Source: Salinisphaera sp. LB1 (GTDB lineage: Bacteria > Pseudomonadota > Gammaproteobacteria > Nevskiales > Salinisphaeraceae). From it: a stretch of DNA of 64,000 bases. The notes beneath the pieces are model-generated. The model was not told the DNA's origin. It saw nothing but the letters and a program-made list of their open reading frames with translations, and made no database searches. Numbering within the stretch: position 1 is the stretch's first letter; every line of letters begins with the position of its first letter. Shown here in pieces: positions 1,531-43,878 of the stretch. The position numbers and the translations under genes were made by a program. Location of the stretch: contig NZ_CP029488.1 in the NCBI RefSeq assembly GCF_003177035.1, forward strand, positions 1,860,001-1,924,000. Direction: 5' to 3'.

Positions 1531-1798
1531 GGGTCTGTTGCCGTTTCGTCCGAGTCCGCGCCAAGCGCTGTTTTGCGGCAAGACGAGGCGTAGCGAACGT
1601 GGCGTAGTCGTTCTACGCAAGAGAGCTACAACGCTGGATTGCCGCAAAACAGCGCTTGTCCCGAAGGGTTGGGCCGCAAATCGCGCCCGGCGGCGTTGCA
1701 AGTCTTGATCGTGGCACGCCACGATGCGGCGACTCGCGCCTTGCCGGACACGATTTGCGGTCTCCAACGCGGCGCTCGTACGAAACGGCAACAGACCC
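1531..1798. mobile_element. MITE family 1, copy 1 (full length, 268 bp)
   Basis: The ends are perfect 19-bp inverted repeats (gggtctgttgccgtttcgt at 1531-1549 and its complement at 1780-1798), flanked by TA, or CTAG if one overlapping base on each side is counted. No transposase is encoded. Two internal complementary pairs are visible: 1562-1581 with 1639-1658 (20 bp, perfect) and about 1674-1683 with 1751-1760 (10 bp). Near-identical or rearranged copies sit at 25584, 34769 and 43717. The element abuts the AEC gene, whose TAG stop lies in the right-hand CTAG. The TIR style and CTAG/TA target suggest mobilisation by an IS5- or IS630-like transposase elsewhere; this is an inference. Confidence 0.85.
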
Positions 1799-2745
1799 TA
1801 GATGATCCCGGCCACCCGCAGCACGAACACGCCGGCGGTCATGGTCAGGCTGGCGGCCAGCGTGGTCAGGGCCACGATATTGGCGGCCAGGCGCGCATCG
1901 CCGCCCATGGCCTCGACCATGATGAAGCTGGCGGCCGCGGTCGGGCAGGCGAAGTAGACAAACATCAGCCCCAGTTCGCGCGGCGGATAACCCAGCAGCC
2001 AGCCGCCAAGCACAGCCGCCCCGGGCAGAATCGTCATCTTGATCGCACTGGCCGAGAACGCGATGCCGCGTGCCTCGTAGAGCGCGCGAACCGACAGGGC
2101 GCCACCGATGCAGATCAGGGCCAGCGGCAACGTGAGTTGGGCGAAATATTCGCCGGTGGTCATCACCCACTTCGGCATCGGCATGCCGCTGGTGGCGACG
2201 GCCACCGAGGCCAGGGTTGCCAGAATGAGCGGGTTGGTGGCCACGCCGCGCGTGATCGAGCGCCAGTCCGCGCTTTCGCTCGGCTGGTACCAGGTCAGCA
2301 CGATCACGGCGAGGATGTTGTAGATCAGAATCACCTCGCCGACGAGAACGCTGCCCGCGGACAGGCCGAAATCGCCGTACATGTTTTGCGCCAGCGCCAG
2401 GCCCACGATGCCGCAGTTGCCGCGAAAGGCGCCCTGTACATAGACGCCGCGCTGAATCTCGGGCACGCGCCAGATTGCCCACAGCCAGATCAGTACAAAG
2501 CTGGCGACCGTGGCCAGGCCGAAGTAGGCGATCATCCCCGGGCGAATCGCGTCGCCGAGATTTGCGCCCACGATCGAGACGAAGATCAGCGCCGGCATGC
2601 TGCCCTTGAACACGATCTTCGACGCGGCCGAGACGAAGCGATCGTCGATCCAGCCGACCCGGCGCATGCCGATGCCCACGAAAACCAGCGCGAATACCGG
2701 CAGCGTGACGTCCAGTGTATGGATGAAAATCGCCGCAATATTCAT
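1798..2745 (-). CDS. AEC (auxin efflux carrier) family transporter
   Basis: 315 residues with about ten hydrophobic segments spread over the whole length, opening with a membrane segment (IFIHTLDVTLPVFALVFVGIG) as AEC proteins do. The family (PF03547) holds inner-membrane transporters for organic acids such as malate and malonate, besides auxin in plants; the substrate cannot be read here. The start is placed at the ATG at 2745, because the longer frame to 2841 adds only a basic, non-membrane leader. The stop codon is part of the CTAG that borders MITE family 1 copy 1, so the element inserted at the very end of the gene without truncating it. It lies divergent from fdhD. Confidence 0.85.
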   Translation of the reverse strand: MNIAAIFIHTLDVTLPVFALVFVGIGMRRVGWIDDRFVSAASKIVFKGSMPALIFVSIVGANLGDAIRPGMIAYFGLATVASFVLIWLWAIWRVPEIQRGVYVQGAFRGNCGIVGLALAQNMYGDFGLSAGSVLVGEVILIYNILAVIVLTWYQPSESADWRSITRGVATNPLILATLASVAVATSGMPMPKWVMTTGEYFAQLTLPLALICIGGALSVRALYEARGIAFSASAIKMTILPGAAVLGGWLLGYPPRELGLMFVYFACPTAAASFIMVEAMGGDARLAANIVALTTLAASLTMTAGVFVLRVAGII

Positions 2746-2910
2746 GGGCAACAGCCGGTGGCGCAGGAGTGAAAGGCCGTGGGGCGGCCGGCGGGGCGCC
2801 AGTATAGATTTCGATCCGGCCCGGATACAGCCGCGCGCCACGCCGAGCGCACCGGAAGGTGAGCCCAGGCTTTATGATGGCAGCATTCACATCGGCCACA
2901 CCAAGTGCCC

Positions 2911-3762
2911 ATGCGCCGATCCAACATCCCTGATTCGCCCGATCCCCGGGCGGCAGCCACCTCGGCCCGCGAGCGGGTGGAAATCGCCAGTTACCGTGAT
3001 GGTGGCTGGCGCACGATCGACGACACACTGGCGGTCGAGCGCGCGCTGGAAATTCATGTGGCCGGTGCGGAGCCGCTCATCACCATGCGCACGCCCGGCC
3101 ACGATCGCGAACTGGCCGCCGGCCTGTTGCATGGCGAAGGCGTGGTGCAAACGGTCGACGATATCGTCTATCTGCGCCACAGCCCGGATGAGCCCGACGT
3201 GATTCGCGCCATGCTCAAGCCGGCGGCCCGCGCGCGCCTCGACCGCATCGAGCGCAATACGCTGGCGACCAGCGCCTGCGGCGTCTGCGGCAAGCCGAGT
3301 TTCCGCGCGCCGGAGCCGCGCCGGGGCGATCCGGCCACGGGCGCTGCGTTACGCATCGAGCCCGGCTGGTTGTTGGGGTTGCCCGACCGGATGCGCGCCG
3401 AGCAGGGCGTGTTCGAAACCACCGGCGGCCTGCATGCAGCCGCGCTGTTTGCCGCCGGTGGCGATCTGATTGCGCTGCGCGAGGATGTCGGCCGCCACAA
3501 CGCCCTCGACAAGCTGATCGGTCGGGCGCTGCTCGAGGACGAGTTGCCGCTGGATCAGCAAGCGCTCATGCTGTCCGGCCGGGCGAGCTTCGAACTGTTA
3601 CAGAAGGCGATCGCGGCCGGTATTCCGGTCGTCTGCGCAATCTCGGCACCGAGCAGCTTCGCGGTGGAGCTGGCCCGTCGGTTTTCGACCACGCTGGTTG
3701 GTTTTCTGCGCGGCGAACGCTTCAACTGTTACAGCGGCGTCCATCGTCTGGGCCCGGCGTAG
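2911..3762 (+). CDS. fdhD: FdhD, sulfurtransferase for formate dehydrogenase maturation
   Basis: FdhD passes sulfur from IscS to the molybdenum cofactor of formate dehydrogenase and is needed for its activity. The protein of 283 residues has the active-site CGVC loop (within SACGVCGK, near residues 123-126) and the conserved GGLHAAALF and REDVGRHNALDKLIG blocks. A GTG two codons upstream (2905) is an alternative start. The gene sits 2.3 kb after the fdhA end; the AEC gene and a small mobile element lie between them. With moaA at 45 kb this shows a working Moco/formate dehydrogenase pathway. Confidence 0.95.
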   Translation: MRRSNIPDSPDPRAAATSARERVEIASYRDGGWRTIDDTLAVERALEIHVAGAEPLITMRTPGHDRELAAGLLHGEGVVQTVDDIVYLRHSPDEPDVIRAMLKPAARARLDRIERNTLATSACGVCGKPSFRAPEPRRGDPATGAALRIEPGWLLGLPDRMRAEQGVFETTGGLHAAALFAAGGDLIALREDVGRHNALDKLIGRALLEDELPLDQQALMLSGRASFELLQKAIAAGIPVVCAISAPSSFAVELARRFSTTLVGFLRGERFNCYSGVHRLGPA

Positions 3763-3885
3763 GCGGCATCGACTGGCGAGGTCGACTTATGCCCAATTGA
3801 CGGCGGCGGCCCGGGGCATAACGCTCTGCCGCTAATTCGCGGCCGTTGGGGGCCGCGGTGACACAATCGATATTGGGGGAAATAC

Positions 3886-4950
3886 ATGACCAGCCGAAAT
3901 TTCTGGGTCGCCAGCGCACTGGCGGCAGTGATGGCGCTCGCCGGCTGCGGCCAGTCGAGCAACGATCAGGATCAGGCCGCCAGCGGAAGCGCATCCGATA
4001 ACGCCGGGCAATCGGTGAACCTGATCTTCGGCACGGGCGGCACCTCGGGTACGTATTACCCGATCGGCGGCGCGCTCAAGGGCGTGTTCGAGAAGAGTGA
4101 TCGGATCGGCAACGTACAGGTGGTCTCCACCGGCGCTTCGGTGCAGAACATCAACAACATCATGGATGGCACCAACCAGATCGCCATCGTGATGAGCGAC
4201 GTGGCCTACGACGCGCTCAAGGGCAATAACCAGTTCAAGGGACGGCCGGCCAAGATCGACGCGCTCGCGGGCCTGTATCCGAATGTCGTGCAGATCGTCG
4301 CGCTCGACGGCTCGAACATCCACAGCGTGGCCGACCTGAAGGGCAAGCGGGTCGGCGTGGGCAAGGTCGGCTCGGGTGTGGAGGCCAGTGCCAAGAAGGT
4401 GCTGGAATCCGCCGGGCTGAAATACGACGATCTGGCACGTGTCTCGCACACTGGCTATGCCGACTCGGTCACCGACATGAGCAACGGCAATCTGGACGCG
4501 GCGTTTTTCACCTCGGGCGTGCCGAATTCGTCGATCACCGGCCTGATGCAGAACACCAAGGTGCATTTCGTCAACGTCGACGGCGCCACTGCGAAGAAAC
4601 TGCTGCAGGAGTATCCGTACTACGAAAACTACGATATCCCGGCGCACAAGAAGAACGAATACGATCTGGCCAACGACGTGCACACGGTCTCGATCCGCAA
4701 TCTGCTGATCGTGCCGGCGTCGATGGACAAGGCGGTCGCCAGGGATCTGGCCCAGCGCTTCTACGACTATCTCGGCTCCGATAGCGTTTCGGTCGCGGCA
4801 CTCAAGCAGTTCGATCGCAACAAGATGAACCAGAATCTGGTGTTGCCGGTGCATCCGGGCGCCAAGGCGTTCTACGACACGCTGAATCAGGGCGGATCGG
4901 GCTCGGACGGCAGCAGCAGCGGCGGCGCAAGCGACGCCGGTAAATCCTAG
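3886..4950 (+). CDS. TAXI-family TRAP transporter solute-binding lipoprotein
   Basis: A 354-residue periplasmic binding protein with a lipoprotein signal: basic N-terminus, hydrophobic stretch and lipobox LAGC with Cys at about residue 21. The mature part starts with a linker rich in S, N, D and Q, then the TAXI signature GTGGTSGTYYPIGGALKGVF. The rest is the NMT1/TAXI fold (about residues 45-330), and the C-terminus is a Gly/Ser-rich tail. TAXI binding proteins feed a fused TRAP permease; known ligands include glutamate/glutamine and other carboxylates, but the substrate here is unknown. It is the first gene of a three-gene operon: the next CDS begins at the base after its stop codon. Confidence 0.92.
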   Translation: MTSRNFWVASALAAVMALAGCGQSSNDQDQAASGSASDNAGQSVNLIFGTGGTSGTYYPIGGALKGVFEKSDRIGNVQVVSTGASVQNINNIMDGTNQIAIVMSDVAYDALKGNNQFKGRPAKIDALAGLYPNVVQIVALDGSNIHSVADLKGKRVGVGKVGSGVEASAKKVLESAGLKYDDLARVSHTGYADSVTDMSNGNLDAAFFTSGVPNSSITGLMQNTKVHFVNVDGATAKKLLQEYPYYENYDIPAHKKNEYDLANDVHTVSIRNLLIVPASMDKAVARDLAQRFYDYLGSDSVSVAALKQFDRNKMNQNLVLPVHPGAKAFYDTLNQGGSGSDGSSSGGASDAGKS

Positions 4951-5499
4951 TTGCCGCCGGCAGGGCGGCGCTGGCGGCTGCTGGTCGTCGGTGTCGGGCT
5001 GTTGGTCGCGATCGGTGCGGGTCTGTGGCTCGGCTGGCCGCGCGCCTGGCTGGAGATTCGCCACGGTAGCCGTGTGATCGCGGTCTATCCGGGCGCGTCC
5101 GGCACGCGGTTCGCGCTGCGCTGGATGCATTCGGTGGAGCTTGAAGACTGGATCGAATGTTTTCGCGTGACCGGCGACGGCGCCATCGATATCGCGGCCA
5201 CCCGCTTCAAGACGTTTGGCGCCGGAGTGCCGGCCCACGCCGGGCGGCATACGCGGCTCGACCACGGCTGGGTGGTGATGTCGGGCATCGATCGCGATGT
5301 CGATCCGCTCACGGTGCAGGCGGCCGCTGCCGAGCGCTATCGTTTCCGCTACGGTGGCGGCGCCTGGCACCGGCTGTCGTACAACGGCGCCGAGCCCATC
5401 CTGGTATTCACCATCATGCGTGCGCCGCTGATCGCCGTGGCCTGGTCGCGCCTGGCCACAATCTGGCGCGGCCCGGCCACGGATACAACCCGAGCCTGA
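4951..5499 (+). CDS. DUF1850 protein of TAXI-TRAP operon
   Basis: 182 residues with one N-terminal membrane anchor (about residues 8-28, LLVVGVGLLVAIGAGLWLG) and a DUF1850 domain; the block RWMHSVELEDWIECFRV is the characteristic HSVE-type motif. DUF1850 genes are nearly always found between TAXI binding proteins and their fused permeases; the molecular role is not known. The start is a TTG directly after the TAG of the upstream gene (no spacer), so translation is probably coupled by re-initiation. The permease ATG follows one base after its stop. Confidence 0.85.
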   Translation: MPPAGRRWRLLVVGVGLLVAIGAGLWLGWPRAWLEIRHGSRVIAVYPGASGTRFALRWMHSVELEDWIECFRVTGDGAIDIAATRFKTFGAGVPAHAGRHTRLDHGWVVMSGIDRDVDPLTVQAAAAERYRFRYGGGAWHRLSYNGAEPILVFTIMRAPLIAVAWSRLATIWRGPATDTTRA

Positions 5500-5500
5500 T

Positions 5501-8875: not shown

Positions 8876-8894
8876 CGCGTTTTTCTGTTTTCCC

Positions 8895-8990: not shown

Positions 8991-9039
8991 GTCGGCAAAG
9001 CCGGAATGGCCGGTAGTTCGTGGTCGAGCCCGGCCCAGC

Positions 9040-10203: not shown

Positions 10204-11103
10204 ATGATCGAACGTCTGCCTTTGAACGCCTTACGTGCCTTTGCGATAGCGGCGCGCCATGAGAGCTTCAAGCATGCGGCCGAACAACTGAGCGTGACCG
10301 CCGGTGCGGTTAGCCGGCAGGTCAAGCGGCTGGAAGGCAAACGGGGGTGTGCATTATTAACCCGGCACAAAAATAGATGATTTTTCGGGTTAATAGCGCG
10401 AGTATGCGACCGCATGCTCGCCGCGGCCATTGGCCGCGAAGCCTTTAAAAATAAAAGACGGACAGGCGCCGGCTTTTATTTTTGAAGGCTGTGAAAACAG
10501 CTGATGAAGTCAGCTGTTTTGGTGCCGGATTAATATTCCAGCGCCGGGCGCATGGGGTGCAGCTGAGCGCCGCCGGGCGCGCCTTGGCCGAACGGGTCGA
10601 GGTTCATCTTGAGGGGCTGGCAGCGGCTATGGCACAGGTCCGACACGATGACGGCGAGGCGCTGTCGGTCAGTGCGCCACCGTCGTTCGTTCAATACTGG
10701 CTGATGCCGCGGCTGGCCAGCTTCGATGCCGGCGACGCCGAAGTGGCGATCGAGGCCAGCCAATCGCTGATCGAGCCGACCTGGCAGAACGGTCGCAGCC
10801 GGCTCGCTATTCGTTTCGGGCCGGAACCAGCGCGCGGCGCCGGTTCATCAGAGCTACTCGCTGTTCAGTCTGGCTTCGGATCAAGCGATTGCCGGGCGCG
10901 GCGTGGCGCTGGCCACGCGTACGGTGGTGGCCGATCGTCTGGCCAGCGGCGTGTTGGTCGCCCCGTTTGGTGATCGCTACGCCATGCCGTCGCCGTTCGA
11001 TTACTGGCTGGTACGGCCGGCTACCGGTTCGCCGCCGCCCCTGGCGCATCGGTTTTGCGAGTGGCTGCGACTGGAAGCCGAGGCGTTCGCGCGGTCGGCG
11101 TGA
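10204..11103 (+). pseudogene. LysR-family regulator, interrupted by MITE family 2 and internally deleted
   Basis: The first 45 codons encode an intact LysR helix-turn-helix (LPLNALRAFAIAARHESFKHAAEQLSVTAGAVSRQVKRLEG). The frame reads A-L up to 10356 and is then broken by the 177-bp element; after it, FQRRAHGVQLSAAGRAL resumes in another frame. Removing the element and one TA restores GCA TTA TTC CAG exactly. A second lesion follows: after RLAIRFG (about 10820) roughly 70 codons are missing, and the end (FSLASDQAIAGRGVALATRTVVADRL to 11103) is in a third frame. A GcvA-like regulator of the divergent EamA gene is the likely ancestor. Confidence 0.85.
10357..10533 (+). mobile_element. MITE family 2, copy A (177 bp, TA-flanked)
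   Basis: The element has ends ttaacccggcac and gtgccggattaa, flanked by TA at 10355-10356 and 10534-10535. It is nearly identical to 53510-53686 in reverse orientation. The body is almost wholly stem-loops: an end hairpin with TTAACCCG/CGGGTTAA, a GC-rich CGCGGCCATTGGCCGCG palindrome, an AAAATAAAAG...CTTTTATTTT stem, and AAAACAGCTGA...TCAGCTGTTTT. It encodes no protein. TA target duplication is the habit of IS630/Tc1/mariner elements, so a mariner-type MITE is the best reading. Confidence 0.85.
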
Positions 11104-24938: not shown

Positions 24939-25898
24939 TCAAGCGAATCGAAACGCGGCGTCGCACTGTATTGTCAGAGGGTCGAGTAAAGGCAGGGGGC
25001 TGGTGCGTGCGTCGGTTGCCATGGGCAACTCGGTGCAGGCCAGCACGGCTGCGTCGCAATGGGAATGGCGCGCCGCAAGACTTCGAAAGTATTCGGGCGC
25101 ATCGCCGGGTTCCTTACCCGCGGCAATCGCCGACTGAATGCTTTGGATATGCTGGCGATCGCCCAGCGCCGGGATCTCGACTTCCAGCCCCGCGCTTTGG
25201 AGACGTCCGGCGTAGTAGCCATTTTCCATAGTGAACTGGGTGCCCAGCAAGAGAACCCGGCTGTAGCCGCGATCCAGGGCCACGCGCGCTGTTTCATCCA
25301 CGATATGGATGATTGGAATATGAGCCGGCCACCGGTCGGACAGTTCGTCGATGGCTCGATGAAGCGTGTTGCAGCACACGACCACGCAATCCGGGCGCAT
25401 CGCGAATAACTCGGCCAATTCCGGCTCGAATAATCGCAACACGCGAGCCCAATCATTGCCGTAGCAGCGCATGATCGGGGCGTAGTCGATACTCTTGAGC
25501 AGCAATCGTGCGGAATGCGTGTCACCGAATTCACGCTGAGCGAGTTGGTTGAGATAGCGGTAATATTCGATTGTCGAGGGCTGGGGCCTGTTGCCGTTTC
25601 GTTCGAGTCCGCGCCAAGCGCTGTTTTGCGGCAAGACGAGGCGTAGCGAACGTGGCGTAGTTGTTCTACGTGAGAGAGCTACAACGCTGGATTGCCGCAA
25701 AACAGCGCTTGTCCCTTCGGGTTGGGCCGCAAATCGCGCCCTGCGGCGTTACGAGTCTGGGTCGTGGCACGCCACGACGCGGCGACTCGCGCCTTGCCGG
25801 ACACGATTTGCGGTCTCCAACGCGGCGCTCGTACGAAACGGCAACAGGCCCCAGGCAGTGCCACCGAGAAGACCAATCGTTTTCATGTGTTTTCTCAT
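24939..25898 (-). pseudogene. Aspartate/glutamate racemase family gene split by MITE family 1
   Basis: Minus strand: after a GGAGGA ribosome site, ATG at 25898 starts MRKHMKTIGLLGGTAW, the normal N-terminus of this family (MKTIGLIGGMSW-like). The element at 25584-25851 then interrupts. Beyond it PSTIEYYRYLNQLAQREFG resumes, exactly where family members have STIEYY after the Trp. The remainder is intact, with both catalytic cysteines (VVVCCNTLH and VLACTELP). Neither frame passes through the element without a stop, so no complete racemase can be made from the ATG. It follows the same orientation as the APC permease downstream, suggesting a former uptake-racemisation unit. Confidence 0.9.
25584..25851. 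mobile_element. MITE family 1, copy 2 (full length, 268 bp)
   Basis: Same length and layout as copy 1, with ends gggcctgttgccgtttcgt and acgaaacggcaacaggccc. Both ends carry the same compensating T-to-C change (GGTC to GGCC), so the inverted repeat stays perfect. The internal 20-bp complementary arms are kept. It lies between the 12 or so first codons and the rest of a racemase gene. No clear target duplication is visible beyond the palindromic ct/ag edges. Confidence 0.85.
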
Positions 25899-32678: not shown

Positions 32679-33562
32679 GCGTGCAAATCGACCATATCGA
32701 CAAGATGTTCTTTCCCGACGCCGGGATCACGAAGGGGGATCTGGCCAATTATTACCGCCGGATCGCGCCGGTCATGCTGCCGTATGTGAAGGACCGGCCG
32801 GTGACGCTCAATCGTTTTCCCGACGGCATCGAAGGCACCCATTTCATCCAGAAAGCGGTCCAGGACCATTATCCTGACTGGCTGGAACACGTGACGGTCG
32901 CCAAGGAAGATGGCGAGCTGGTTCAGCCGCTCATCAACTCGGCCGACGCGTTGGCCTATCTGGTCGGCCAGGGCGCGATCGCCTTCCATGTGACGCTGAG
33001 CCGCTACGACCGTCCCGAGCATCCGGATCGGCTCATCTTCGATCTCGATCCGCCGGGTCATGGCGGCGAAGGCGGCGATTTCGCGCCCGTCATCGCCGCG
33101 GCGCGCGCCGTGCGCGATGCGCTGGAAGCGGTGGACCTCACCTCGTTCGTGATGACCTCGGGCTCCTCCGGACTGCATGTGGCGGTCCCGCTTGACCGCC
33201 ATGCGGGTTTCGATACGGTGCGCGAGTTCGCGCAAGGCATTGCCGAGCGTGTAGCCGATGCCCATCCGGAGGAATTCACTACGGCGCACGCCAAGAACAA
33301 GCGCGGCGGGCGGTTGTATCTCGACACCCGCCGCAACGCGGTGAACCAGACCGCCGTGGCCCCGTATTCGGTCCGGCCCAGGCCGGGCGCGCCCATCGCC
33401 ACCCCGCTGGAATGGGACGAGCTTGCCGATGCGGACATCGGCCCGCGGCGCTTCCATGTTGGCAACATCTTCCGGCGCCTGGCGCAGCGCGATTGCCCCT
33501 GGTCGAACATCGCCCGCCACGGGCAGAGTGTGCGACGCGCCCTCGAACGGCTGCGTGATTAG
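32675..33562 (+). CDS. LigD polymerase (primase-like) domain as a separate protein
   Basis: 295 residues of the archaeo-eukaryotic primase superfamily as found in LigD. The catalytic pair is in IFDLDP (Asp about 123 and 125). SGSSGLHVAVPL and VAPYSVRPRPGAPIATPLEWDEL are the other conserved blocks, with NRFPDGIEGTHFIQK near the N-terminus. It adds nucleotides, with a preference for ribonucleotides, at broken ends. The GTG start at 32675 overlaps the ligase stop. The gene ends 31 bases before the IS110 transposase end, so anything that followed, such as ku, may have been moved or lost. Confidence 0.93.
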   Translation: MSVQIDHIDKMFFPDAGITKGDLANYYRRIAPVMLPYVKDRPVTLNRFPDGIEGTHFIQKAVQDHYPDWLEHVTVAKEDGELVQPLINSADALAYLVGQGAIAFHVTLSRYDRPEHPDRLIFDLDPPGHGGEGGDFAPVIAAARAVRDALEAVDLTSFVMTSGSSGLHVAVPLDRHAGFDTVREFAQGIAERVADAHPEEFTTAHAKNKRGGRLYLDTRRNAVNQTAVAPYSVRPRPGAPIATPLEWDELADADIGPRRFHVGNIFRRLAQRDCPWSNIARHGQSVRRALERLRD

Positions 33563-33593
33563 ATACCATCTTGCCGTCTCCGCACCAAGGGGC

Positions 33594-34577
33594 TCATGTA
33601 GCGCCTTGGGGTTGATAGGGCGTCTGGTGCTTAAGCACGCCATACGCGAGATGGACGAGCTTGCGCATGGCGCCGCCGAGGGCGCTCATATCGCTTTTAC
33701 CGCGTGCTGTTAAGCGTTGATACTGGGCCGCGATATCCGGGTTGTGTTTGGTGCTGACGATGGCGGCCATATAGAGCAGTTGTCGCAGTTTAGGATTACC
33801 GGCCTTGGATAGACGCGGCGGTCCATGGACCGAACTCCCCGAATCCCACGGCACCGGGATGACGCCGATGAAGGCCGCGGCTTGGCGGGCACTGGTGAAG
33901 TCGCGGCTTCGCAGTGTGGCCAGCAGGCGCCGCGATACGGTGGGGCCAATGCCGGGCACCGACTCTAATAAAGCGCGATCTTTTTTCAGCGCGGGATGGC
34001 GATCGATATGATCGTCAATATCGCGCGTCAACCGATCGCGTTCGGCCCGTAGCGCGTCGAGCACCGTATCGATCGACGCGATGATCTCTTCGGCCTGAAC
34101 GACCTCGGCCTTTTCCCGGCGATTGCGCTCGCGTTGAATATCCTTATCGAGCGCCTCAAGACGGGCGAGACGCGCTTTGAGTCCACGCACCGCCGCAGGT
34201 TCGGGCTGCCACAGCCGCGGGCGACGAGCCGCCCCATAGCGGGCCAGAACGACGCTGTCTTTCCGGTCGTTCTTGCCGCGCACTCCCAGGCTTTTGGCAA
34301 ACTCCCGGACCTGCGCGGGGTTCATCACGGACACGCCCAAACCGGCCTCATAAAGCGCCTGAGCCAAGGCTTCGTGATAAATCCCGGTCGCTTCCATGAT
34401 GATGTGGATTTGATCGGCCGGCGTGCCGGTCTGCTGCGCCAGCCAGTCCAATACAGCTGCGTGCCCCGCGGTGTCGTTGCCAAAGACCTTGGTCTTGACC
34501 TTGACCCGATCAGGATCCCGCAGCCAAGCACAGTCGAATTTGCGTTTACTGACGTCAATGCCGATGTAGACGGTCAT
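33594..34577 (-). CDS. IS110-family transposase
   Basis: 327 residues. The N-terminal RuvC-like DEDD domain shows Asp8 (YIGIDVSK), Glu62 (IIMEATG), and Asp104 and Asp107 (GKNDRKDS). A coiled region (about 125-195) follows, then the C-terminal Tnp domain with PGIGPTVSRRLLA and the serine-bearing SGSSVHGPPRLSKAGNPKLRQLLYMAA. IS110 recombinases are guided by a bridge RNA made from the element's own non-coding end. The ATG at 34577 has GAAGG upstream. The frame is intact, so the element may be active. It sits between the ligD operon and MITE family 1 copy 3. Confidence 0.95.
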   Translation of the reverse strand: MTVYIGIDVSKRKFDCAWLRDPDRVKVKTKVFGNDTAGHAAVLDWLAQQTGTPADQIHIIMEATGIYHEALAQALYEAGLGVSVMNPAQVREFAKSLGVRGKNDRKDSVVLARYGAARRPRLWQPEPAAVRGLKARLARLEALDKDIQRERNRREKAEVVQAEEIIASIDTVLDALRAERDRLTRDIDDHIDRHPALKKDRALLESVPGIGPTVSRRLLATLRSRDFTSARQAAAFIGVIPVPWDSGSSVHGPPRLSKAGNPKLRQLLYMAAIVSTKHNPDIAAQYQRLTARGKSDMSALGGAMRKLVHLAYGVLKHQTPYQPQGAT

Positions 34578-34768
34578 CTCGTGCCTTCTCCTTGTTCGTG
34601 CAGTCTCACCGCGCCAGCGGGGACTTGGAACCCATTCACGTTTGCGAGATGAAAAATCGGTCGGGCGCATGATCTAACGCGCAAGCTATAAGCTTCAGGG
34701 TCTGTGGATGCTCACCCGACCGAGCACCGCTGACTGGTAGCTAATCAGTCAGCTTCGGCAAGACACAA
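34578..34768 (-). ncRNA. IS110 left non-coding end, possible bridge-RNA region
   Basis: The 190 bases before the transposase start encode no protein but are structured: cggtcggg (34658-34665) pairs with cccgaccg (34715-34722), enclosing the short stem aagctATAagctt, and ctgact (34730-34735) pairs with agtcag (34747-34752). In the IS110 subgroup the bridge RNA comes from this side of the gene. That this copy does so is an inference, and the exact ends of the element are not defined. Confidence 0.4.
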
Positions 34769-35076
34769 GGGTCTGTTGCCGTTTCGTCCGAGTCCGCGCC
34801 AAGCGCTTCCTGAAAAATTACTTGGGGGCGGCAAGACGAGGCGTAGCGAACGTGGCGTAGTCGTTCTACGAGAGAGCACCAACGCTGGATTGCCGTCGTG
34901 TCGTCAATCGTTGGGCGCTTGTCCCGAAGGGTTGGGCCGCCCATAAAAAATTTACTAGGGGCGCCCTGCGGCGTTGCAAGTCTTGATCGTGGCACGCCAC
35001 GATGCGGCGACTCGCGCCTTGCCGGACACGTTTTGCGGTCTCCAACGCGGCGCTCGTACGAAACGGCAACAGACCC
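34769..35076. mobile_element. MITE family 1, copy 3 (308 bp, variant with three substituted segments)
   Basis: Same 19-bp terminal inverted repeat as copy 1 and near-identical backbone. In three places short segments of copy 1 (TGTTTTG, CAAAACA, AAATC) are replaced by longer unrelated stretches of about 19-22 bases. The first two replacements destroy the internal 20-bp pairing of copies 1 and 2. The right border carries TA, the left AA. It lies just beside the IS110 non-coding end. Confidence 0.8.
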
Positions 35077-37183: not shown

Positions 37184-38310
37184 ATGCGCGAAACGCCCTG
37201 AATTTCTCCGGTGGCCCCGGCGCCTTGCCGGAAAGCGTGCTGCGCGAGGTGCAACAGGCGATCGTCGAGGTGCCGGAGGTCGGCCTTTCGGTATTGGGGA
37301 TCAGCCATCGGTCCGACTGGTTCGCGGCCGTGGTCGACGAGCTGGAACACAATATCCGTACGCTGCTCGGCGTGGGCGAGAATTATCACGTGCTGTTGTT
37401 GCAGGGCGGGGCGACGCAGCAATTCACCATGGTGCCCATGACCCTGCTGCCGCCCGACGGCGCGCCGGCCGATTACCTGCATACCGGTTACTGGAGCGGC
37501 AAGGTCCTGCCTGCAGCGCGCCGTGAGGGCCCGATCCGGGTGGCCTGGAGCGGCGAGGCGGACGGCTTCCGTCACCTGCCCAGCGACGATACGCTTGCGC
37601 TCAGCGATACGGCGCCCTATCTGCACTACGTTTCCAACGAAACCGTGGAAGGGCTGCAATTTCATCGCGTGCTCGGGCACGACAACGTGCTCCGGGTCTG
37701 CGACATGTCGTCGGACTTCCTGTCGCGCCCGGTCGAAGCCGAGCGGTTTGGCCTGATCTATGCCCATGCGCAGAAGAACGTGGGCCCCGCCGGGGTCACC
37801 GTGGTCGTGGTGCGGGACGATCTGATTCAGGACGCGCCACAGGGTTTGCCCGATTTCCTCGATTATCGTTGCCACGTCCGCGCCCACTCCGTTCTCAACA
37901 CGCCGCCGGTGTTCGCGATCTACGTCGTGTTGTTGGTCACCCGCTGGCTGATGCACGACATCGGCGGCCTGGAGGCGATGGACGCCATCAATCGACAAAA
38001 GGCGGCGCGGCTCTACAGCGTGCTGGATGAAAGCGACGGGTTCTACCGGGGGTGGGCGGCCGAGCGCGACCGCTCTATCATGAATGTCGCATTCAACCTG
38101 CCGGACGAGACGCTGGAGCAGCGTTTTCTTGCCGAAGCCGAGGCCGCCGGCCTTTCCGGGCTGAAAGGCCATCGCGCCATCGGCGGTCTGCGGGCGTCGC
38201 TGTACAACGCGGTGACACTGGAAGCCGTCGAACAGTTGGCCGATTTCATGGATCGGTTTCGCGGTGCCCGGTCGATGTCGGCGCAGAGGGTGAGCGGCGT
38301 TCGAGGCTGA
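37180..38310 (+). CDS. serC: Phosphoserine aminotransferase
   Basis: 376 residues of the class V PLP aminotransferase family, close to SerC throughout: NFSGGPGALPESVLREVQQAI, LLLQGGATQQF, the PLP-lysine block YAHAQKNVGPAGVT, HSVLNTPPVFAIY and GLKGHRAIGGLRASLYNAV. SerC converts 3-phosphohydroxypyruvate to phosphoserine and also serves PLP synthesis. The ATG at 37180 overlaps the stop of the ATP-grasp gene. The partner is unusual, since serC commonly neighbours pdxB, serA, aroA or pheA. It may be the main SerC or a paralogue for the ATP-grasp pathway. Confidence 0.92.
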   Translation: MNARNALNFSGGPGALPESVLREVQQAIVEVPEVGLSVLGISHRSDWFAAVVDELEHNIRTLLGVGENYHVLLLQGGATQQFTMVPMTLLPPDGAPADYLHTGYWSGKVLPAARREGPIRVAWSGEADGFRHLPSDDTLALSDTAPYLHYVSNETVEGLQFHRVLGHDNVLRVCDMSSDFLSRPVEAERFGLIYAHAQKNVGPAGVTVVVVRDDLIQDAPQGLPDFLDYRCHVRAHSVLNTPPVFAIYVVLLVTRWLMHDIGGLEAMDAINRQKAARLYSVLDESDGFYRGWAAERDRSIMNVAFNLPDETLEQRFLAEAEAAGLSGLKGHRAIGGLRASLYNAVTLEAVEQLADFMDRFRGARSMSAQRVSGVRG

Positions 38311-38782
38311 CCCGCCGCGGGCGTTGCGCCTGCGGCCGGAAACATCGCGGCGCGGCGCTCGCTGGCGCCCGGGCTGAAGTTTGTCGCCCGACGCGCGCGG
38401 GTCAACAACCGTCAGGTGGCACGGCCGGCACGCCGGGATCGCACGTGCCGCCGATCGTGCAGGTCATTCGTGTTATTGGACGAAAGTCGTTGCCGGCGCG
38501 TTGATACCGTGCTTTAGTTCCCGATCGTAGCAGAACGGATGCGCTGCCCGGCCCGGCCGAGGCCTGTCTCGTTTGCCTAGCGCTTGCGGCCGTCCGAAGC
38601 GCCGATTGGAGTTCGATCTGATGGCTCTTTCGCGCGTTGTCATCCGTACCCGGGTCGGTTGCGGTGCCCTGGGTCGGGCCCGGTGCCGGCTCGATTCGCC
38701 CGGCTATTCCGGCGCGCAGGACAGGATCGGCCTGCCGGTCTCGCCGTGGCTGCGGCCCACGGTCGGCACCTGAGCCTCGCCC
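38311..38782. other. 470-bp intergenic region with no supported gene
   Basis: Between serC and the efflux operon I find no homology, RNA gene or repeat. A 66-codon frame at 38573-38773 has no features supporting it. Promoters for the efflux operon probably lie in the right half. Confidence 0.5.
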
Positions 38783-39988
38783 ATGCGCTCACAACGTTCC
38801 CCGTCGGACTCGCAAGGCGCGCCGCGCATGCCGGATACCGCCGGGCGTGGCCCCAGCCTGGTCAAGCGCATGATCGTGATGGTCGTGGGCGTACTCTTGC
38901 TGGTGGCTTTGATCGTCGGCGCGAAGGTTGGGCTGGTCATGCGCAAGATCGCCAGCCTGCCCAAGCCGGCGCCGGCAACGGTGAGCACCGCAGTGGCCCG
39001 CTATCAGGCCTGGCAACCGGCGTTGCACGCCGTGGGCAGCCTGCGCGCGGTGCGCGGCGCCGATCTGGCGCTGGACGTGCCGGGCCTGGTCAACCGGATC
39101 CACGTCCGATCCGGCCAGCACGTCAACAAGGGCGAACTGCTCTTGCAGCTGAATGACGCCGACGATCGCGCCCAGCTGGCACAGCTCGAAGCCGCCGCTC
39201 GACTGTCGCGGCTGAATTATCGTCGCGCCGACCAGCAGCGGGCCTCGCACGCCATCAGCACGGCCGACTACGACAGTGCGGCGGCCGACCTGAAGGGCAA
39301 GCAGGCGGCCGTCGCCGGGCAGAAGGCACTGGTTTCCAAGAAGCAGCTACGCGCGCCGTTTGCCGGGCGCGCGGGCATCATCACGGTCAGCCCCGGTGAC
39401 TATCTCAATGCCGGTACCGCGATCGTGACGCTGCAGCAGATCGACTCGCTTTATGCGGATTTCAGTGTGCCGCAACGCGCGATCGGCCGGCTGCAGATCG
39501 GCCAGACCATCCATCTGGCGGTGGATGCCTACGATTCCCGGCGTTTCGACGGGCGGGTCACCGCCATCAATCCGAAAGTGGATACGGACACCCGCAACGT
39601 GCAGGTTGAAGCTATCGTGCCCAACGCCGATGGCGCCCTGTTGCCGGGCATGTTCGCCAACATTCGTGTCGATGCCGGTCGCAGGCAGCGCTATCTGACG
39701 CTGCCGCAAGCGGCCATCGTCTACAACCCGTACGGCGACATGGTGTTTGTCGTCCAGCCGTCCAAGGGGAATAACGAGCAGGGGCAGCCGCTGCCCGCCA
39801 CCGTCCAGCAGACGCTGGTCACCACCGGCGAAACCCGCGGCGACCAGGTCGCGATCGTCAAGGGCCTCGCCGCCGGGGCGACCGTGGTTACCAGCGGCCA
39901 GATCAAACTGAGCAACGGCGCGCCGATCACGATCGACAACAACGTGCAGCCGGCGGACGCCGCGCATCCGACGCCGCAGGAACATTAG
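38783..39988 (+). CDS. RND efflux periplasmic adaptor (membrane fusion protein)
   Basis: 401 residues: a cytoplasmic basic leader, one membrane anchor (about residues 29-55, MIVMVVGVLLLVALIVGAKVG), then the lipoyl halves around an alpha-helical hairpin (VPGLVNRIHVRSGQHVNKGELLLQLND and LRAPFAGRAGIITVSPGDYLNAG), and the beta-barrel and membrane-proximal domains. It bridges the inner-membrane pump to an outer-membrane channel. The pump gene follows 165 bases on. The start could also be the ATG at 38828. The outer-membrane factor is not in the window. Confidence 0.92.
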   Translation: MRSQRSPSDSQGAPRMPDTAGRGPSLVKRMIVMVVGVLLLVALIVGAKVGLVMRKIASLPKPAPATVSTAVARYQAWQPALHAVGSLRAVRGADLALDVPGLVNRIHVRSGQHVNKGELLLQLNDADDRAQLAQLEAAARLSRLNYRRADQQRASHAISTADYDSAAADLKGKQAAVAGQKALVSKKQLRAPFAGRAGIITVSPGDYLNAGTAIVTLQQIDSLYADFSVPQRAIGRLQIGQTIHLAVDAYDSRRFDGRVTAINPKVDTDTRNVQVEAIVPNADGALLPGMFANIRVDAGRRQRYLTLPQAAIVYNPYGDMVFVVQPSKGNNEQGQPLPATVQQTLVTTGETRGDQVAIVKGLAAGATVVTSGQIKLSNGAPITIDNNVQPADAAHPTPQEH

Positions 39989-40153
39989 CGTGGCGATATT
40001 TTGTGCGCGGCCCATGCCGCAACGGCATTGCCGCAACACGTGGCGCAGCGCCCCCGGACATAGTCGCGCCACGCAAACCAGCCACAAAGCGGACGGGCGG
40101 CCCGGCCGCCCGCGCGACCGTCGCACGAGCGCGCTCCCGGTGCGGGCGGCGCC

Positions 40154-43100
40154 ATGAAGTTCACCGATCTTTTCGTCAATCGGCCGGTGCTGGCGATTGT
40201 GGTCAGTACGCTGATCCTGGTGCTCGGTTTGCGGGCGGTCACCGGCCTCACGGTGCGTCAGTATCCGAAAACGGAAAATGCCACGGTCACGGTGACCACC
40301 GCTTATTACGGCGCCGACGCGCAAACCATGGCCGGTTTCGTGACCCAGCCGCTGGAGCAGGCGATCGCCCAGGCCCAGGGCATCGACTATCTGTCGTCGA
40401 GCAGCGTGTCCGGTGTTTCCACCATCACCGCCACGCTGCGCCTGAATTACGACGCCAACCGTGCGCTCAGCGAGATCAACACCCAGGTCAATTCGGTACG
40501 CAACAAGCTGCCGCCGGCGGCGCAGCAGCCGGTGCTGACGGTGCAGACCGGCGAGACCATCGACGCGATGTACATGGGCTTCTACAGCGACGAGTTGCCC
40601 ACCAACAACATCACCGATTATCTGGCGCGCGTGGTCAAGCCCAAGCTGGATTCCATCGCCGGGGTACAGACCGCCGAGCTCCTTGGCGCGCGCCAGTTCG
40701 CCTTGCGCGCATGGCTGGACCCGGCGCGCATGGCCGCCCACGGGGTGACGGCCAGCGACGTGCATGCCGCGCTGGCGGCGAACAATTACCTGGCCGCGAT
40801 CGGCTCGACCAAGGGGCAGGCCGTGACGGTGGATCTGACCACCGACAGCGACCTGCACACGGTCGACGAGTTCAGGCAGCTCGCCATCAAGCAGCACAAC
40901 GGCGCCATCGTGCGCCTGCAGGATGTGGCCCACGTCACGCTGGGCTCCGAGAACTACGACGCCAACGTAGCCTTCGGCGGCAAGAGTTCGGTGTTCATCG
41001 GTATCAAGGTCGCGCCCGACGCCAACATTCTGGACGTCGCCCGGCGGGTACGCGAGGCGTTTCCGGGCCTGCAGCGCCAGCTGCCCAACAGCATGACCGG
41101 CGCGATCGTGTATGACGCCACCGCGTTCGTGAACACCTCGATCCACGAGGTGATCAAGACGCTGGTGGAGGCGCTGCTGATCGTCACCGCGGTGATCTTC
41201 CTGTTCCTCGGCAGCCTGCGCGCGGTGGTCATTCCGCTGGTGGCCATGCCGCTGTCGATGGTCGGCACCTTCTTCATGATGCTGGTGCTGGGTTACTCCA
41301 TCAATCTGCTCACGCTGCTGGCGCTGGTGCTGGCCATCGGGCTGGTGGTCGACGATGCCATCATCGTGGTCGAGAACGTCGATCGCCACATGAAGGACGA
41401 GGGCAAGACGCCGCGCCAGGCCGCGCTGCTGGCCGCCCGCGAGCTGGGCGGCCCGATTCTGGCGATGACCGTGGTACTGATCGCGGTCTATGCCCCGATC
41501 GGTTTTCAGAAAGGCCTGACCGGCGCGCTGTTCACCGAGTTCGCCTTCACCCTGGCGGGTGCGGTGACGGTATCGGCGGTGATCGCGCTGACGCTGTCGC
41601 CGATGATGTGTTCGCGTTTTTTTCGCGCCAGCGCGAACCCCGGCCGCTTGCCGGCCTTCATCGATCGCCAGTTCGAGCGCGTGAGCGAGCGCTACCAGCG
41701 CGCGCTGCACGGCGCGCTGGATACCTGGGTGGTGCTCGCGGTGATGGGGGGCCTGCTGTTTCTGGCCACCATCGCGCTCGGCATGACGGCGAGCTCGGAA
41801 CTGGCGCCGGAAGAGGATCAGGGGGTGGTGATCGGCCAGATCGTGGGCGCGCCCAACGCGACCGCGCAGCAGATGGATGTCTACGCCCACCAGATGTTCG
41901 ACAAGGCCCGCAGCCTTCCGGAGTACGATCAGATGTTCCAGATCACCGGCACGCCGACGATCAATCAGGGCATCGGCGGCGTGCTGTTCAAACCCTGGGA
42001 CCAGCGCAGCCGCAACGCCCATGTTCTGCAGACGGTGCTGCAGCAGAAGTGGAACGATATCGCCGGTGCGCGGGTGGCGGCATTCCAGTTTCCGGCGTTG
42101 CCGGGTGCCTCGGGGTTGCCGATCCAGCTGGTGATCACCACCACCGAGCCATTCCGGAATCTCTACGAGGTGGCCCAGGCGGTCAAGAAAAAGGCCCAGG
42201 CCAGCGGCAAGTTCTATTACATCGATTCCAACCTCAAGCTGGACAAGCCGCAGAGCACGATCGTGTTCGACCGCGATCTGATCACCGCCCTCGGCCTGAC
42301 CCAGAAGGACGTCGGCGCGTCGCTGTCGGCCGCGCTCGGCGGCGGCTACGTCAACTACTTCTCGATCGCCGGGCGATCCTACAAGGTGATTCCGCAGGTG
42401 CGGCAGGCCGATCGGCTGAACCCCGATCAGGTGCTGGATTACTATCTTGGCGTGCCGGACGGCGCGTTGATCCCGGCAGCAACCGTGGCCACGCTGAAGC
42501 CGGAGGTGGTGCCGCAGTCGCTCAACCGGTTCCAGCAACTCAACTCGGCGACCATCTCCGGCGTATCGGGCATGTCGCAGGGGGCCGCGCTGGCCTTTCT
42601 GCGTACCGCGGTCCACGACGTCGCGCCCGGCGGCGATTACCATGTCGATTATTCGGGCGCGTCACGACAGTTCGAGCAGGAATCCGGCGGTTTCGTCAAT
42701 ACGCTTCTGTTGGCCACCATCATCGTGTTCCTGGTGCTGGCGGCCCAGTTCAATAGCCTGCGCGACCCGGCCGTGATCCTGGTTTCGGTGCCGCTGGCCC
42801 TGTTCGGCGCCCTGATCTTCGTCAATCTGTTCACCAGTCTCAACATCTATACCGAGGTCGGCCTGGTGACGTTGATGGGACTGATCAGCAAGCACGGCAT
42901 CCTGATCGTCCAGTTCGCCAACGATCTGCAGCGCGCCGGCCTGTCCAAGCGCGAGGCCATCGAGCAGGCGGCCGGTGTGCGTCTGCGGCCGATCCTGATG
43001 ACCACCGCCGCCATGGTGCTGGGCGTGGTGCCGCTGGTGATTGCCACGGGCGCGGGGGCTGCCGGCCGGTTCAACATGGGGCTGGTGATATCCACCGGCC

Positions 43101-43186
43101 TGGCCATCGGCACGCTGTTTACCCTATTCGTGGTGCCGGCCTTCTACATGTTGCTGGCGGCGCGGCACGAGACGACTAGTCCGTGA
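40154..43186 (+). CDS. RND multidrug efflux permease (HAE1 type)
   Basis: 1010 residues, twelve membrane segments and two large periplasmic loops. Seen are the start MKFTDLFVNRPVLAIVVSTLILVLG, the TM4 proton-relay block ALVLAIGLVVDDAIIVVENVDRHM with two adjacent Asp, and the TM9-TM12 region LVTLMGLISKHGILIVQFANDLQ. The length and motifs fit proton-driven drug exporters of the MexB/MdtC class. It works with the adaptor at 38783. Its 3' end overlaps the convergent ybaK by 11 bases. The specific substrates cannot be read from sequence. Confidence 0.95.
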   Translation: MKFTDLFVNRPVLAIVVSTLILVLGLRAVTGLTVRQYPKTENATVTVTTAYYGADAQTMAGFVTQPLEQAIAQAQGIDYLSSSSVSGVSTITATLRLNYDANRALSEINTQVNSVRNKLPPAAQQPVLTVQTGETIDAMYMGFYSDELPTNNITDYLARVVKPKLDSIAGVQTAELLGARQFALRAWLDPARMAAHGVTASDVHAALAANNYLAAIGSTKGQAVTVDLTTDSDLHTVDEFRQLAIKQHNGAIVRLQDVAHVTLGSENYDANVAFGGKSSVFIGIKVAPDANILDVARRVREAFPGLQRQLPNSMTGAIVYDATAFVNTSIHEVIKTLVEALLIVTAVIFLFLGSLRAVVIPLVAMPLSMVGTFFMMLVLGYSINLLTLLALVLAIGLVVDDAIIVVENVDRHMKDEGKTPRQAALLAARELGGPILAMTVVLIAVYAPIGFQKGLTGALFTEFAFTLAGAVTVSAVIALTLSPMMCSRFFRASANPGRLPAFIDRQFERVSERYQRALHGALDTWVVLAVMGGLLFLATIALGMTASSELAPEEDQGVVIGQIVGAPNATAQQMDVYAHQMFDKARSLPEYDQMFQITGTPTINQGIGGVLFKPWDQRSRNAHVLQTVLQQKWNDIAGARVAAFQFPALPGASGLPIQLVITTTEPFRNLYEVAQAVKKKAQASGKFYYIDSNLKLDKPQSTIVFDRDLITALGLTQKDVGASLSAALGGGYVNYFSIAGRSYKVIPQVRQADRLNPDQVLDYYLGVPDGALIPAATVATLKPEVVPQSLNRFQQLNSATISGVSGMSQGAALAFLRTAVHDVAPGGDYHVDYSGASRQFEQESGGFVNTLLLATIIVFLVLAAQFNSLRDPAVILVSVPLALFGALIFVNLFTSLNIYTEVGLVTLMGLISKHGILIVQFANDLQRAGLSKREAIEQAAGVRLRPILMTTAAMVLGVVPLVIATGAGAAGRFNMGLVISTGLAIGTLFTLFVVPAFYMLLAARHETTSP

Positions 43187-43643
43187 TATCGGCGAATTGC
43201 CCGTCGGTGAGTGCCGCCAGATCGCCCGGGCTGAGACTGATTTCCAGCCCGCGCCGGCCGGCGCTGACATGCATCTGTTCCAATCGCAGTGCCGAGCTGT
43301 CGATGACGGTGGCCAGCCGTTTCTTCTGCCCGAGCGGGCTGACCCCGCCCAGCACGTAACCGGTCATCTTCTCGACAGTTGCCGGCTCGGCCATAAAGGT
43401 CTTTTTCGTGTTCATGGTGGCGGCGAGTTTCTTCAGATTCAGCCGGCCCGAGACGGGCACGATGGCGACCACGAACGCGTGCGTGCCGGTCTCGGCGACC
43501 AGCGTCTTGAAAACTTCCTGCGGCGACAGCCCCAGTTGATGGGAGGCATCGATGCCGTACTCGCCCGCGGCCCTGCTGGCATCGTAGCGCCGGACCTCGT
43601 GGGCGATGCCCGCGGCTTCGAGGATCTGGATGGCAGGTGTCAC
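43176..43643 (-). CDS. ybaK: Cys-tRNA(Pro)/Cys-tRNA(Cys) deacylase YbaK
   Basis: 155 residues, normal for YbaK/EbsC. Characteristic blocks are TPAIQILEAAGIAHEVRRYD, the catalytic-lysine region EVFKTLVAE, AATMNTKKTFMAEP and TGYVLGGVSPLGQKKRL. YbaK hydrolyses Cys mischarged on tRNA(Pro). It stands alone and overlaps the 3' end of the efflux permease by 11 bases, so no terminator separates the convergent genes. Confidence 0.93.
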   Translation of the reverse strand: MTPAIQILEAAGIAHEVRRYDASRAAGEYGIDASHQLGLSPQEVFKTLVAETGTHAFVVAIVPVSGRLNLKKLAATMNTKKTFMAEPATVEKMTGYVLGGVSPLGQKKRLATVIDSSALRLEQMHVSAGRRGLEISLSPGDLAALTDGQFADITD

Positions 43644-43716
43644 GGCCGGTGCGCTTCATGGACTAAACGATTGGAAATGGTAGCGCGCCGCCCCGGCGCC
43701 GGCGAGCGTGGCGCCA

Positions 43717-43878
43717 GGGTCTGTTGTCCCTTCGGGTTGGGCCGCCCATAAAATCAATCAGGGCGCCGATACGGCGTTGCGCGTCTTGCTCGTGGCACGC
43801 CACGACCGGCGACGCGCGCCTTGTCTCGACGGATTTGCGGTCTCCAACGCGGCGCGCGCACGAAACGGCAACAGGCCC
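43717..43878. mobile_element. MITE family 1, copy 4 (162 bp, internally deleted)
   Basis: Left end gggtctgttg joins directly to the inner sequence tcccttcgggttgggccgc, so about 130 bases of the full element are missing; the junction falls on a TTG shared by both sides. The right end acgaaacggcaacaggccc is complete with TA after it. At the third variable site it carries a CCATAAAA-type segment like copy 3. It lies between ybaK and trmO. Confidence 0.8.

What the first reader, a model, noticed from the sequence alone, without database searches (positions are those of the whole stretch)
1531..43878. Four-copy family of transposase-less elements (MITE family 1)
Four copies (1531-1798, 25584-25851, 34769-35076, 43717-43878) share a perfect 19-bp terminal inverted repeat (gggtctgttgccgtttcgt). 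Two are exactly 268 bp; one is expanded to 308 and one deleted to 162 bp. None encodes a transposase. Full copies hold a 20-bp and a 10-bp internal complementary pair, so they can fold into a large cruciform or RNA. Four in 64 kb implies a heavy load in this genome.
Basis: partly seen in the sequence, partly recalled or inferred. Interest (0 to 1): 0.7.

Follow-up and report, generated by a model that had tools for sequence, protein, structure and literature searches.

The report
Folded mini-transposon with RNA-guided hitchhiker
The four repeats are copies of a small mobile DNA element that carries no enzyme, folds into two hairpins, shares its ends with a known type of jumping gene, and itself serves as the landing address of a second jumping gene that appears to find it with a short guide RNA.

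Summary
The four repeats are real and belong to a MITE family: 42 TIR-bounded copies in the fetched loci of this 4.14-Mb Salinisphaera-type genome, matches in all 13 same-genus relatives searched and the exact TIR in Pseudomonas and Stutzerimonas. Mobility is shown by an insertion inside an IS110 copy; four other copies of that IS110 in the same genome lack it. No partner transposase was found in this genome, but ISPa67-like IS5-family elements elsewhere share the TIR. The body is not IS-derived; its two hairpins keep pairing while sequence turns over: 150 two-sided changes against 20.5 for shuffled partners. Both ends often change together, in part matching the resident IS5. Unexpectedly, an IS110-family element (33560-34768) sits flush against copy 3, and its 5' noncoding region contains 9 nt identical to the MITE end plus T. 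In 11 copies from five genomes this segment matches the insertion site exactly in 9 and with one mismatch in 2; 8 of 11 sites are MITE ends. I read this as a bridge-RNA-guided element homing on MITE ends. The parts are known kinds; this family and pairing did not appear in my searches.

The parts
1531..1798 (+). MITE copy 1, 268 bp (SSS form), both ends GGGTCTGTTGCCGTTTCGT, flanked by CTA / TAG; abuts the 3' end of a membrane-transport ORF (PF03547, 1798-2841 minus), whose TAG stop consists of the flanking TA and the last element base
1563..1657 (+). hairpin A of copy 1: arms AAGCGCTGTTTTGCGGCAA / TTGCCGCAAAACAGCGCTT
   Evidence: folds; two-sided changes
1660..1668 (+). mini-hairpin CCCGAAGGG between the two large hairpins (CCCTTCGGG in other copies)
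1669..1767 (+). hairpin B of copy 1 (limits approximate)
25584..25851 (+). MITE copy 2, 268 bp, both ends GGGCCTGTTGCCGTTTCGT; interrupts an Asp/Glu racemase gene (PF01177, minus strand) near its start
   Evidence: genes of two relatives lack the element
34769..35076 (+). MITE copy 3, 308 bp (LLL form); left end flush against the IS110 element
43717..43878 (+). MITE copy 4, 162 bp, internally deleted: left TIR broken after about 10 bases, right end intact
33560..34768 (-). IS110-family element, 1209 bp; recombinase ORF (PF01548 + PF02371) probably from the ATG at 34577 to the stop at 33594
34578..34768 (-). 5' noncoding region of the IS110 element, 191 nt, candidate bridge RNA
   Evidence: sequence, fold of 34579-34768 z -2.36, alignment; no Rfam match
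34697..34705 (-). candidate left-target guide ACAGACCCT, identical to the MITE end plus the T of the flanking TA
34627..34635 (-). candidate donor guide, ATGGGTTCC in this copy and 3 others, ATGGTATCC in 5 of 9 aligned copies (the IS right end reads ATGGTATCT)

Best explanation
The four repeats are members of a MITE family: non-coding units that a transposase made elsewhere cuts at the shared TIRs and inserts, usually at TA. The most likely transposase is that of ISPa67-like IS5-family elements (about 860 bp, PF13340 + PF01609), whose TIRs match those of the MITE. The body is not a shrunken IS: it is a long imperfect palindrome with two hairpins whose base pairs have been kept while the sequence changed, in lineages now found in several genera. 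I infer that the fold helps the element to survive or move, with templated repair between palindrome arms as a possible contributor. The junction of MITE end and TA is in turn the target of an IS110-family element whose 5' noncoding region carries a 9-nt guide matching it. Shown here: copies, empty sites, TIR sharing with IS5, pair covariation, guide-target match. Inferred: mobilisation in trans, a benefit of the fold, and RNA guidance.
For: Copies. Genus-wide (14 of 14 genomes incl. own) and wider (32 of 61 incl. own); exact TIR in Pseudomonas, Stutzerimonas and others: (capped list). Empty site: L020 (974598) lies in an IS110 copy; four other copies of that IS110 in the same genome (98% identical over 300 bp) lack the element plus one TA (five such places listed). 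Two-bp-shorter sites in relatives for the racemase copy, 223338 and 712118 and for 228986 (L039). IS5 partner: window copy 1 shares 17 of 17 terminal bases with one end and 15 of 16 with the other end of a P. oleovorans IS; a Halomonas IS and a MITE of another Halomonas strain share 18-22 terminal bases; one Azotobacter plasmid holds both an IS of this clade and a MITE. In 4 MITEs compared with 5 ISs every match with E below 0.1 lies in the terminal 24 bases. TIR variants: 9 of 12 sampled MITEs in G006 carry GTTGAGG at both ends as the IS5 copies there do; 5 of 6 in G001 carry GTTGATG at one or both ends, as one end of its IS5 does. Covariation. IS110: guide equals target in 9 of 11, one mismatch in 2; 8 of 11 sites are MITE ends.
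Against: No ISPa67-like IS found in the own genome (PF13340 0 hits; protein search 0 at E<=1e-30; five PF01609 hits, none with such ends), and only 4 of 24 genomes taken from exact-TIR loci have one at E<=1e-40, so present mobility is not shown. IS and MITE TIRs disagree at the central bases in G003 and G005 (1 MITE each), in S. stutzeri 95A6 (G087) and in P. cuatrocienegasensis (G086). Several candidate empty sites in relatives did not align cleanly: L028, L014, L040, L038, L017, L009; three queried sites had no relative across the junction. The G.U versus A.C balance (98 to 78 after excluding three pairs, 223 to 80 with them) gives no clear sign of an RNA from one strand. Three of the 11 IS110 copies sit at sites that are not MITE ends (G000 4119674, G009, G013).
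Confidence: 0.8

Rival explanations
1. Ordinary MITE whose paired arms are kept by a mutational process (template switching between the arms of a palindrome) and not by selection on the fold.
For: TIR pairs co-change as much as internal stems (38 versus 6.8 shuffled). Of ten elements with non-TA bases on both sides, three have flanking dinucleotides that are inverted and not direct repeats (TG..CA at window 25584, GA..TC at 223338, CA..TG in L273), though the last two also fit insertion between non-TA bases. The CCCGAAGGG / CCCTTCGGG alternation looks like loop inversion.
Against: A T.G mismatch at columns 166/207 persists in 58 of 62 elements instead of being repaired. L-type arms that pair poorly also persist in G000.
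Confidence: 0.35
2. The fold is a host-useful RNA (bidirectional terminator or mRNA stability element) and the MITE has been domesticated.
For: Strong fold on both strands.
Against: No Rfam family over its threshold (inside the element only a sub-threshold microRNA-family match, E 0.04 at best); no strand-specific G.U excess overall once three pairs are set aside; copies interrupt a racemase gene and an IS110.
Confidence: 0.1
3. IS110 and MITE travel together as one composite, so the contact is descent and not targeting.
For: Four of the five G000 IS110 copies found touch a MITE end.
Against: Outer flanks and MITE forms differ at each site; IS110 copies at three non-MITE sites still show the guide sequence at the junction (one with a mismatch); guide and target change together between genomes.
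Confidence: 0.05
4. A transposase family other than ISPa67-like IS5 mobilises the MITE (an IS630-like TA-specific element, for instance).
For: No partner found in the own genome; of transposase families only PF13340 and PF01609 were scanned.
Against: IS5 TIRs match in several genera, down to shared variants.
Confidence: 0.1

Closest known systems
ISPa67-like IS5-family elements (NF033580 'transpos_IS5_3', PF13340 + PF01609)
   Same: TIR of the pattern TAGGGnnTGTTnnnGTTT with TA at the ends; the name ISPa67 comes from one annotated record
   Different: about 860 bp with a transposase; no similarity to the MITE body found beyond the terminal 24 bases
ERIC / RU elements and other small structured mobile repeats of bacteria (ERIC features recalled; RU-1 127 bp, RU-2 168 bp, RU-3 103 bp seen in an abstract listing)
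   Same: non-coding, multicopy, folded
   Different: 264-268 bp in its main form with two large hairpins, different ends, an identifiable IS5 partner in relatives; ERIC itself was not compared here
R0/R2 repeats of P. fluorescens SBW25 (PMC2718517, passages read)
   Same: inverted ends identical to those of resident ISs, read there as probable MITEs
   Different: R0 89 bp and R2 110 bp; IS partners present in the same genome
IS621 and other IS110 elements with bridge RNA (PMC11208160, passages); IS1111 members aimed at REP, attC or Tn21-family TIRs (PMC11187229, passages and a reference title)
   Same: nine-base left target guide including a CT core; repeats or transposon ends as targets
   Different: the target here is the end of a MITE plus its TA; guides differ between genomes in step with MITE end variants

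Membership tests
MITE | short, non-coding, TIR-bounded, many copies | tested here: met
   42 TIR-bounded elements, 38 of them of full length; TIR ends 113 against 0 in the control
MITE | target-site duplication / empty site | tested here: met
   GTT--TAGG empty versus GTTTA|element|TAGG occupied, four in-genome copies. Caveat: only 98 of 153 elements have TA on both sides; 42 differ at one outer base on one side, at least 3 of these being IS110 junctions
MITE | TIR shared with an autonomous IS | tested here: met
   in relatives and other genera; not found in the own genome
MITE | internal-deletion derivative of that IS (some definitions) | tested here: not met
   BLASTN word 7, 4 MITEs against 5 ISs: matches with E below 0.1 only in the terminal 24 bases
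MITE | movement in trans by that transposase | not testable with these tools
   needs an assay
IS5 family (partner element) | transposase model above cut-off | tested here: met
   NF033580 266.9 bits against cut-off 110; PF13340 and PF01609, for the L205 element
IS110 family (window 33560-34768) | DEDD_Tnp_IS110 and Transposase_20 domains, no terminal inverted repeats | tested here: met
   PF01548 85.8 bits, PF02371 79.1 bits; ends TTGTGTC... and ...GGTATCTA, judged by eye
IS110 family (window 33560-34768) | 5' noncoding region with a guide matching left target plus core | tested here: met
   9 of 9 bases in 9 of 11 copies, 8 of 9 in 2; transcription not tested
ERIC/RU | ERIC sequence and size | not tested
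   no ERIC sequence was compared; Rfam gave no match over threshold in the loci searched

The most novel reading that the evidence does not exclude
A three-tier arms race readable from sequence: a folded parasite DNA, long-lived across genera, rewrites both of its ends together to stay acceptable to whichever IS5 transposase is resident; its fold is kept because moving requires it; and a bridge-RNA-guided IS110 uses the MITE-TA junction as its address, rewriting its guide in step with the MITE ends of each species.
Probability: 0.35. Interest if true: 0.78.

Novelty: new member of a known kind. Interest (0 to 1): 0.6.

Why it matters
Bacterial MITEs are usually treated as decaying fragments of an IS. 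This one keeps a fold while its sequence turns over across genera, so it allows a test of whether structure itself is selected in a non-coding mobile element. The IS110 case gives a natural series of guide-target changes (ACAGACCCT, ACACGCCCT, ACAGGCCCT) that follows changes of a multicopy target, useful for asking how bridge RNAs evolve new specificities.

Tried and rejected
Autonomous copy inside the family: among loci L062-L201 no TIR pair within 4 kb (one end with at most 1 mismatch) enclosed an ORF that I could call a transposase; four rows held ORFs of 200 aa or more, but each had a 5-mismatch end or spanned two elements, and those ORFs were not identified. The 2.2-kb TIR pair in L043 (870678-872901) holds ORFs that look by eye like LysE and aldo-keto reductase; an IS481-type transposase lies just outside it. 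L202 (G006:C13) looked like an IS5 with the exact TIR, but by eye its transposase has its own GAGCCTGTTTC ends and the TIR is a nearby solo end. A known RNA: nothing over threshold in Rfam. RNA signature from G.U versus A.C: inconclusive. Phages: no match; viral contigs: one exact TIR stretch, not followed. Literature: no paper held contains the 17-base T-type TIR string; of six shorter strings only one, in a paper on pentatricopeptide proteins; no paper with 'miniature inverted-repeat transposable' and Salinisphaera; none. In some searches I saw listings; none of the listed titles concerned this family or an IS110 aimed at MITE ends, but most listed papers were not opened and searches list 20 of 90 and 20 of 180.

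Rows dropped and caps: one search kept end pairs 150-340 bp apart with at most 6 mismatches between the ends and a score limit, which favours similar ends and so inflates concerted change; one search used 144 of the 162 elements by length; 146 (those plus Azotobacter and Halomonas), reduced to 62 below 90% identity; 153 of 162; 38 G000 copies; one search set three pairs aside for the G.U count. One search scored only 40 of 95 candidates and one search lists only the first 100 or so of 113 ends, so the copy number is a lower bound. One search scored only five candidates per genome, so IS110 copies may be missing; of its 13 places 11 have a readable leader and left flank, two of them (G006:C40, G013:C19) cut by a contig end.
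Full report
Observation. Copies 1 and 3 carry the stated 19-bp TIR exactly; copy 2 has C for T at position 4 at both ends; copy 4 has lost most of its left end. Chance expectation for the TIR in the window is 0.03 matches against 7 found. Both strands of copy 1 fold with z about -13.

Genome and relatives. The window lies in a single 4,141,708-bp contig. The genome holds 40 scored BLAST places of copy 1 (40 of 95 candidates scored), 113 TIR ends with up to 3 mismatches (0 for the reversed control) and, in the fetched loci, 42 TIR-bounded elements (43 rows, corrected for sub-pairs). All 13 same-genus genomes searched, and 32 of 61 genomes in all (own included), have matches.

Length forms. In 38 full-length own-genome copies, three sites each take a short or a long module: SSS 22, SLL 7, SSL 5, LLL 3, LSS 1. 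This looks like recombination between a 268-bp and a 308-bp type, and explains the 308-bp copy.

Mobility and target. Element L020 (974598) sits inside an IS110 copy. Four other copies of this IS110 in the same genome, one of them in this window, are 98% identical over 300 bp around the site and lack exactly the element and one TA. Sites in relatives are two bases shorter than the joined flanks for the racemase copy (two relatives), for 223338 and for 712118 and for 228986. Other alignments were not clean: L014 no gap, L040 three bases, L028, L038, L017 and L009 with further gaps or mismatches, L030 not covered; for three further sites no relative crossed the junction. Among 153 elements, 98 have TA on both sides; 42 differ at the outer base on one side only, at least 3 of them because an IS110 is there. 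By my count the outer base differs at 55 of 306 ends and the base next to the element at 13 of 306, so the inner A/T behave largely as part of the mobile unit. I cannot settle whether insertion at non-TA sites duplicates two bases.

Transposase. Same-genus genomes hold IS5-family elements of about 860 bp whose ends read TAGGGCGTGTTGCCGTTTC, TAGGGCGTGTTGAGGTTTC, TAGGGTCTGTTGAGGTTTCGT (one end) or TAGGGCCTGTTGATGTTTCAT (one end). The transposase of one of them matches NF033580 at 266.9 bits (cut-off 110). Related elements in Halomonas, Azotobacter, Aeromonas, P. avellanae, Methylomonas, P. oleovorans, P. ovata and S. stutzeri have ends of the same pattern. A P. oleovorans copy, its reading frame broken, shares 17 of 17 terminal bases with window copy 1 at one end and 15 of 16 at the other. 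An Azotobacter plasmid carries both an IS of this clade and a 265-bp MITE. Comparing 4 MITEs with 5 ISs, every match with E below 0.1 lies in the terminal 24 bases; the best elsewhere has E 0.14. No member of this clade was found in the own genome (five PF01609 hits without such ends), and only 4 of 24 genomes taken from exact-TIR loci have one.

Ends that change together. The two ends of one element differ at 0.93 positions on average against 2.55 for ends of different elements (the pairing rule favours similar ends). Variants are genome-specific and two-ended: 9 of 12 sampled elements of G006 carry GTTGAGG at both ends, as its IS5 copies do, and 5 of 6 of G001 carry GTTGATG at one or both ends (4 at both), as one end of its IS5 does. 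Against this, the single MITE sampled in G003 and in G005, and MITEs of S. stutzeri 95A6 and P. cuatrocienegasensis, do not match the IS of their genome. Tracking is therefore a pattern with exceptions.

Structure. In 62 elements below 90% identity, the consensus structure has 76 pairs, with 4210 of 4694 cells Watson-Crick. On a FastTree tree, 150 pair-branch cases change on both sides against 20.5 with shuffled partners (largest of 2000: 41) and 21-49 with slid partners; hairpin A 43 against 7.6, hairpin B 64 against 13.4, TIR 38 against 6.8; the short stretch between TIR and hairpins shows none beyond chance, 5 against 4.2. The consensus structure was derived from the same sequences, so the controls favour it somewhat. 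Fifteen copies from Pseudomonas-type loci, Halomonas and Azotobacter fold, by eye, into the same outline with different stem sequences. The two hairpins show a modest inverted resemblance (20.2 against 14.1 for shuffles and 15.3 for the same strand; larger than the same-strand score in 42 of 62). Selection on the fold and templated repair between palindrome arms both remain open.

IS110 at the MITE end. The 1209-bp IS110 at 33560-34768 ends flush at copy 3. The five full copies found in this genome (one search scored only five candidates per genome; one search gave the same five) stop at GGG(T/C)CTGT; four of these sites are MITE ends (in one, at 445624, the partner end was not found) and one, at 4119674, is not. 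In the IS110's own orientation the junction is ACAGACC-CT-A, the core CT being the last base of the MITE plus the T of its flanking TA. The 191-nt 5' region contains ACAGACCCT. Bridge RNAs of IS110 elements carry a nine-base left target guide, and the pairing includes the core (PMC11208160, passages). In relatives the same aligned position reads ACACGCCCT in G006, G009 and G013 and ACAGGCCCT in G012. The sites are ACACGCCCT in G006 (three copies, all at MITE ends) and G013 (not a MITE, by eye), ACAGGCCCT in G012 (MITE end, also a hit) and ACACGCTCT in G009 (not a MITE). In all: 9 of 11 exact, 2 of 11 with one mismatch, 8 of 11 at MITE ends; two more listed places had no readable leader. Three of the four MITE ends used in the own genome are GGGT-type, although these are only 10 of the 66 otherwise exact ends listed (counted by eye; P = 0.0096), as the guide predicts. 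The leader folds only moderately (z -2.36), and its transcription is untested. A candidate donor guide (ATGGTATCC in 5 of 9 aligned copies, against ATGGTATCT at the IS right end) reads ATGGGTTCC in the other 4, this one included.

Comparison. MITEs with IS-matching ends are known in Pseudomonas (PMC2718517, passages; PMC6053426, passages, where the partner is given as probable), and IS110/IS1111 elements aimed at REPs, attC sites or the TIRs of Tn21-family transposons are known (passages and a reference title). This family, and an IS110 aimed at MITE ends, did not appear in my ten paper searches, from which I opened four papers in passages. I rate it a new member of a known kind, with an unusually complete natural series of end, guide and target changes.

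Noticed in passing
window 10355-10538 and 53505-53688: A second, unrelated-looking structured repeat of 184 bp, two copies in opposite orientation, 97% alike, with several internal hairpins by eye and ends ATTAA(C/T)CCGGCA.
   Followed up: no
window 34627-34635 (minus) and the copies aligned: The candidate donor guide of the IS110 reads ATGGTATCC in 5 of 9 copies and ATGGGTTCC in 4, with both forms in G000 and in G006, although the IS right end does not change.
   Followed up: partly
L043:4224-5240: An IS481-type transposase gene (PF13011, PF13683) lies directly against a MITE end at a CTAG.
   Followed up: partly
L097, L106, L117, L119, L126, L163, L180 and others: TIR pairs only 48-58 bp apart occur in loci: minimal hairpin forms without the body.
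   Followed up: no
window 25584, L016:6320, L273:501: The dinucleotides flanking these insertions are inverted repeats of each other (TG..CA, GA..TC, CA..TG) and not direct repeats; in the first at least this looks as if flank bases had been copied across the palindrome.
   Followed up: partly
own genome, 24 unpaired TIR ends listed (two of them in fact parts of pairs), such as L049, L050, L054, L056: Solo MITE ends without a partner end in reach, some with a diverged interior.
   Followed up: no
L113 and G008: A record titled Endozoicomonas sp. G2_2 has a contig of 252,057 bp, the same length as a contig of G008, which is placed in the window's genus, so its title looks wrong.
   Followed up: no
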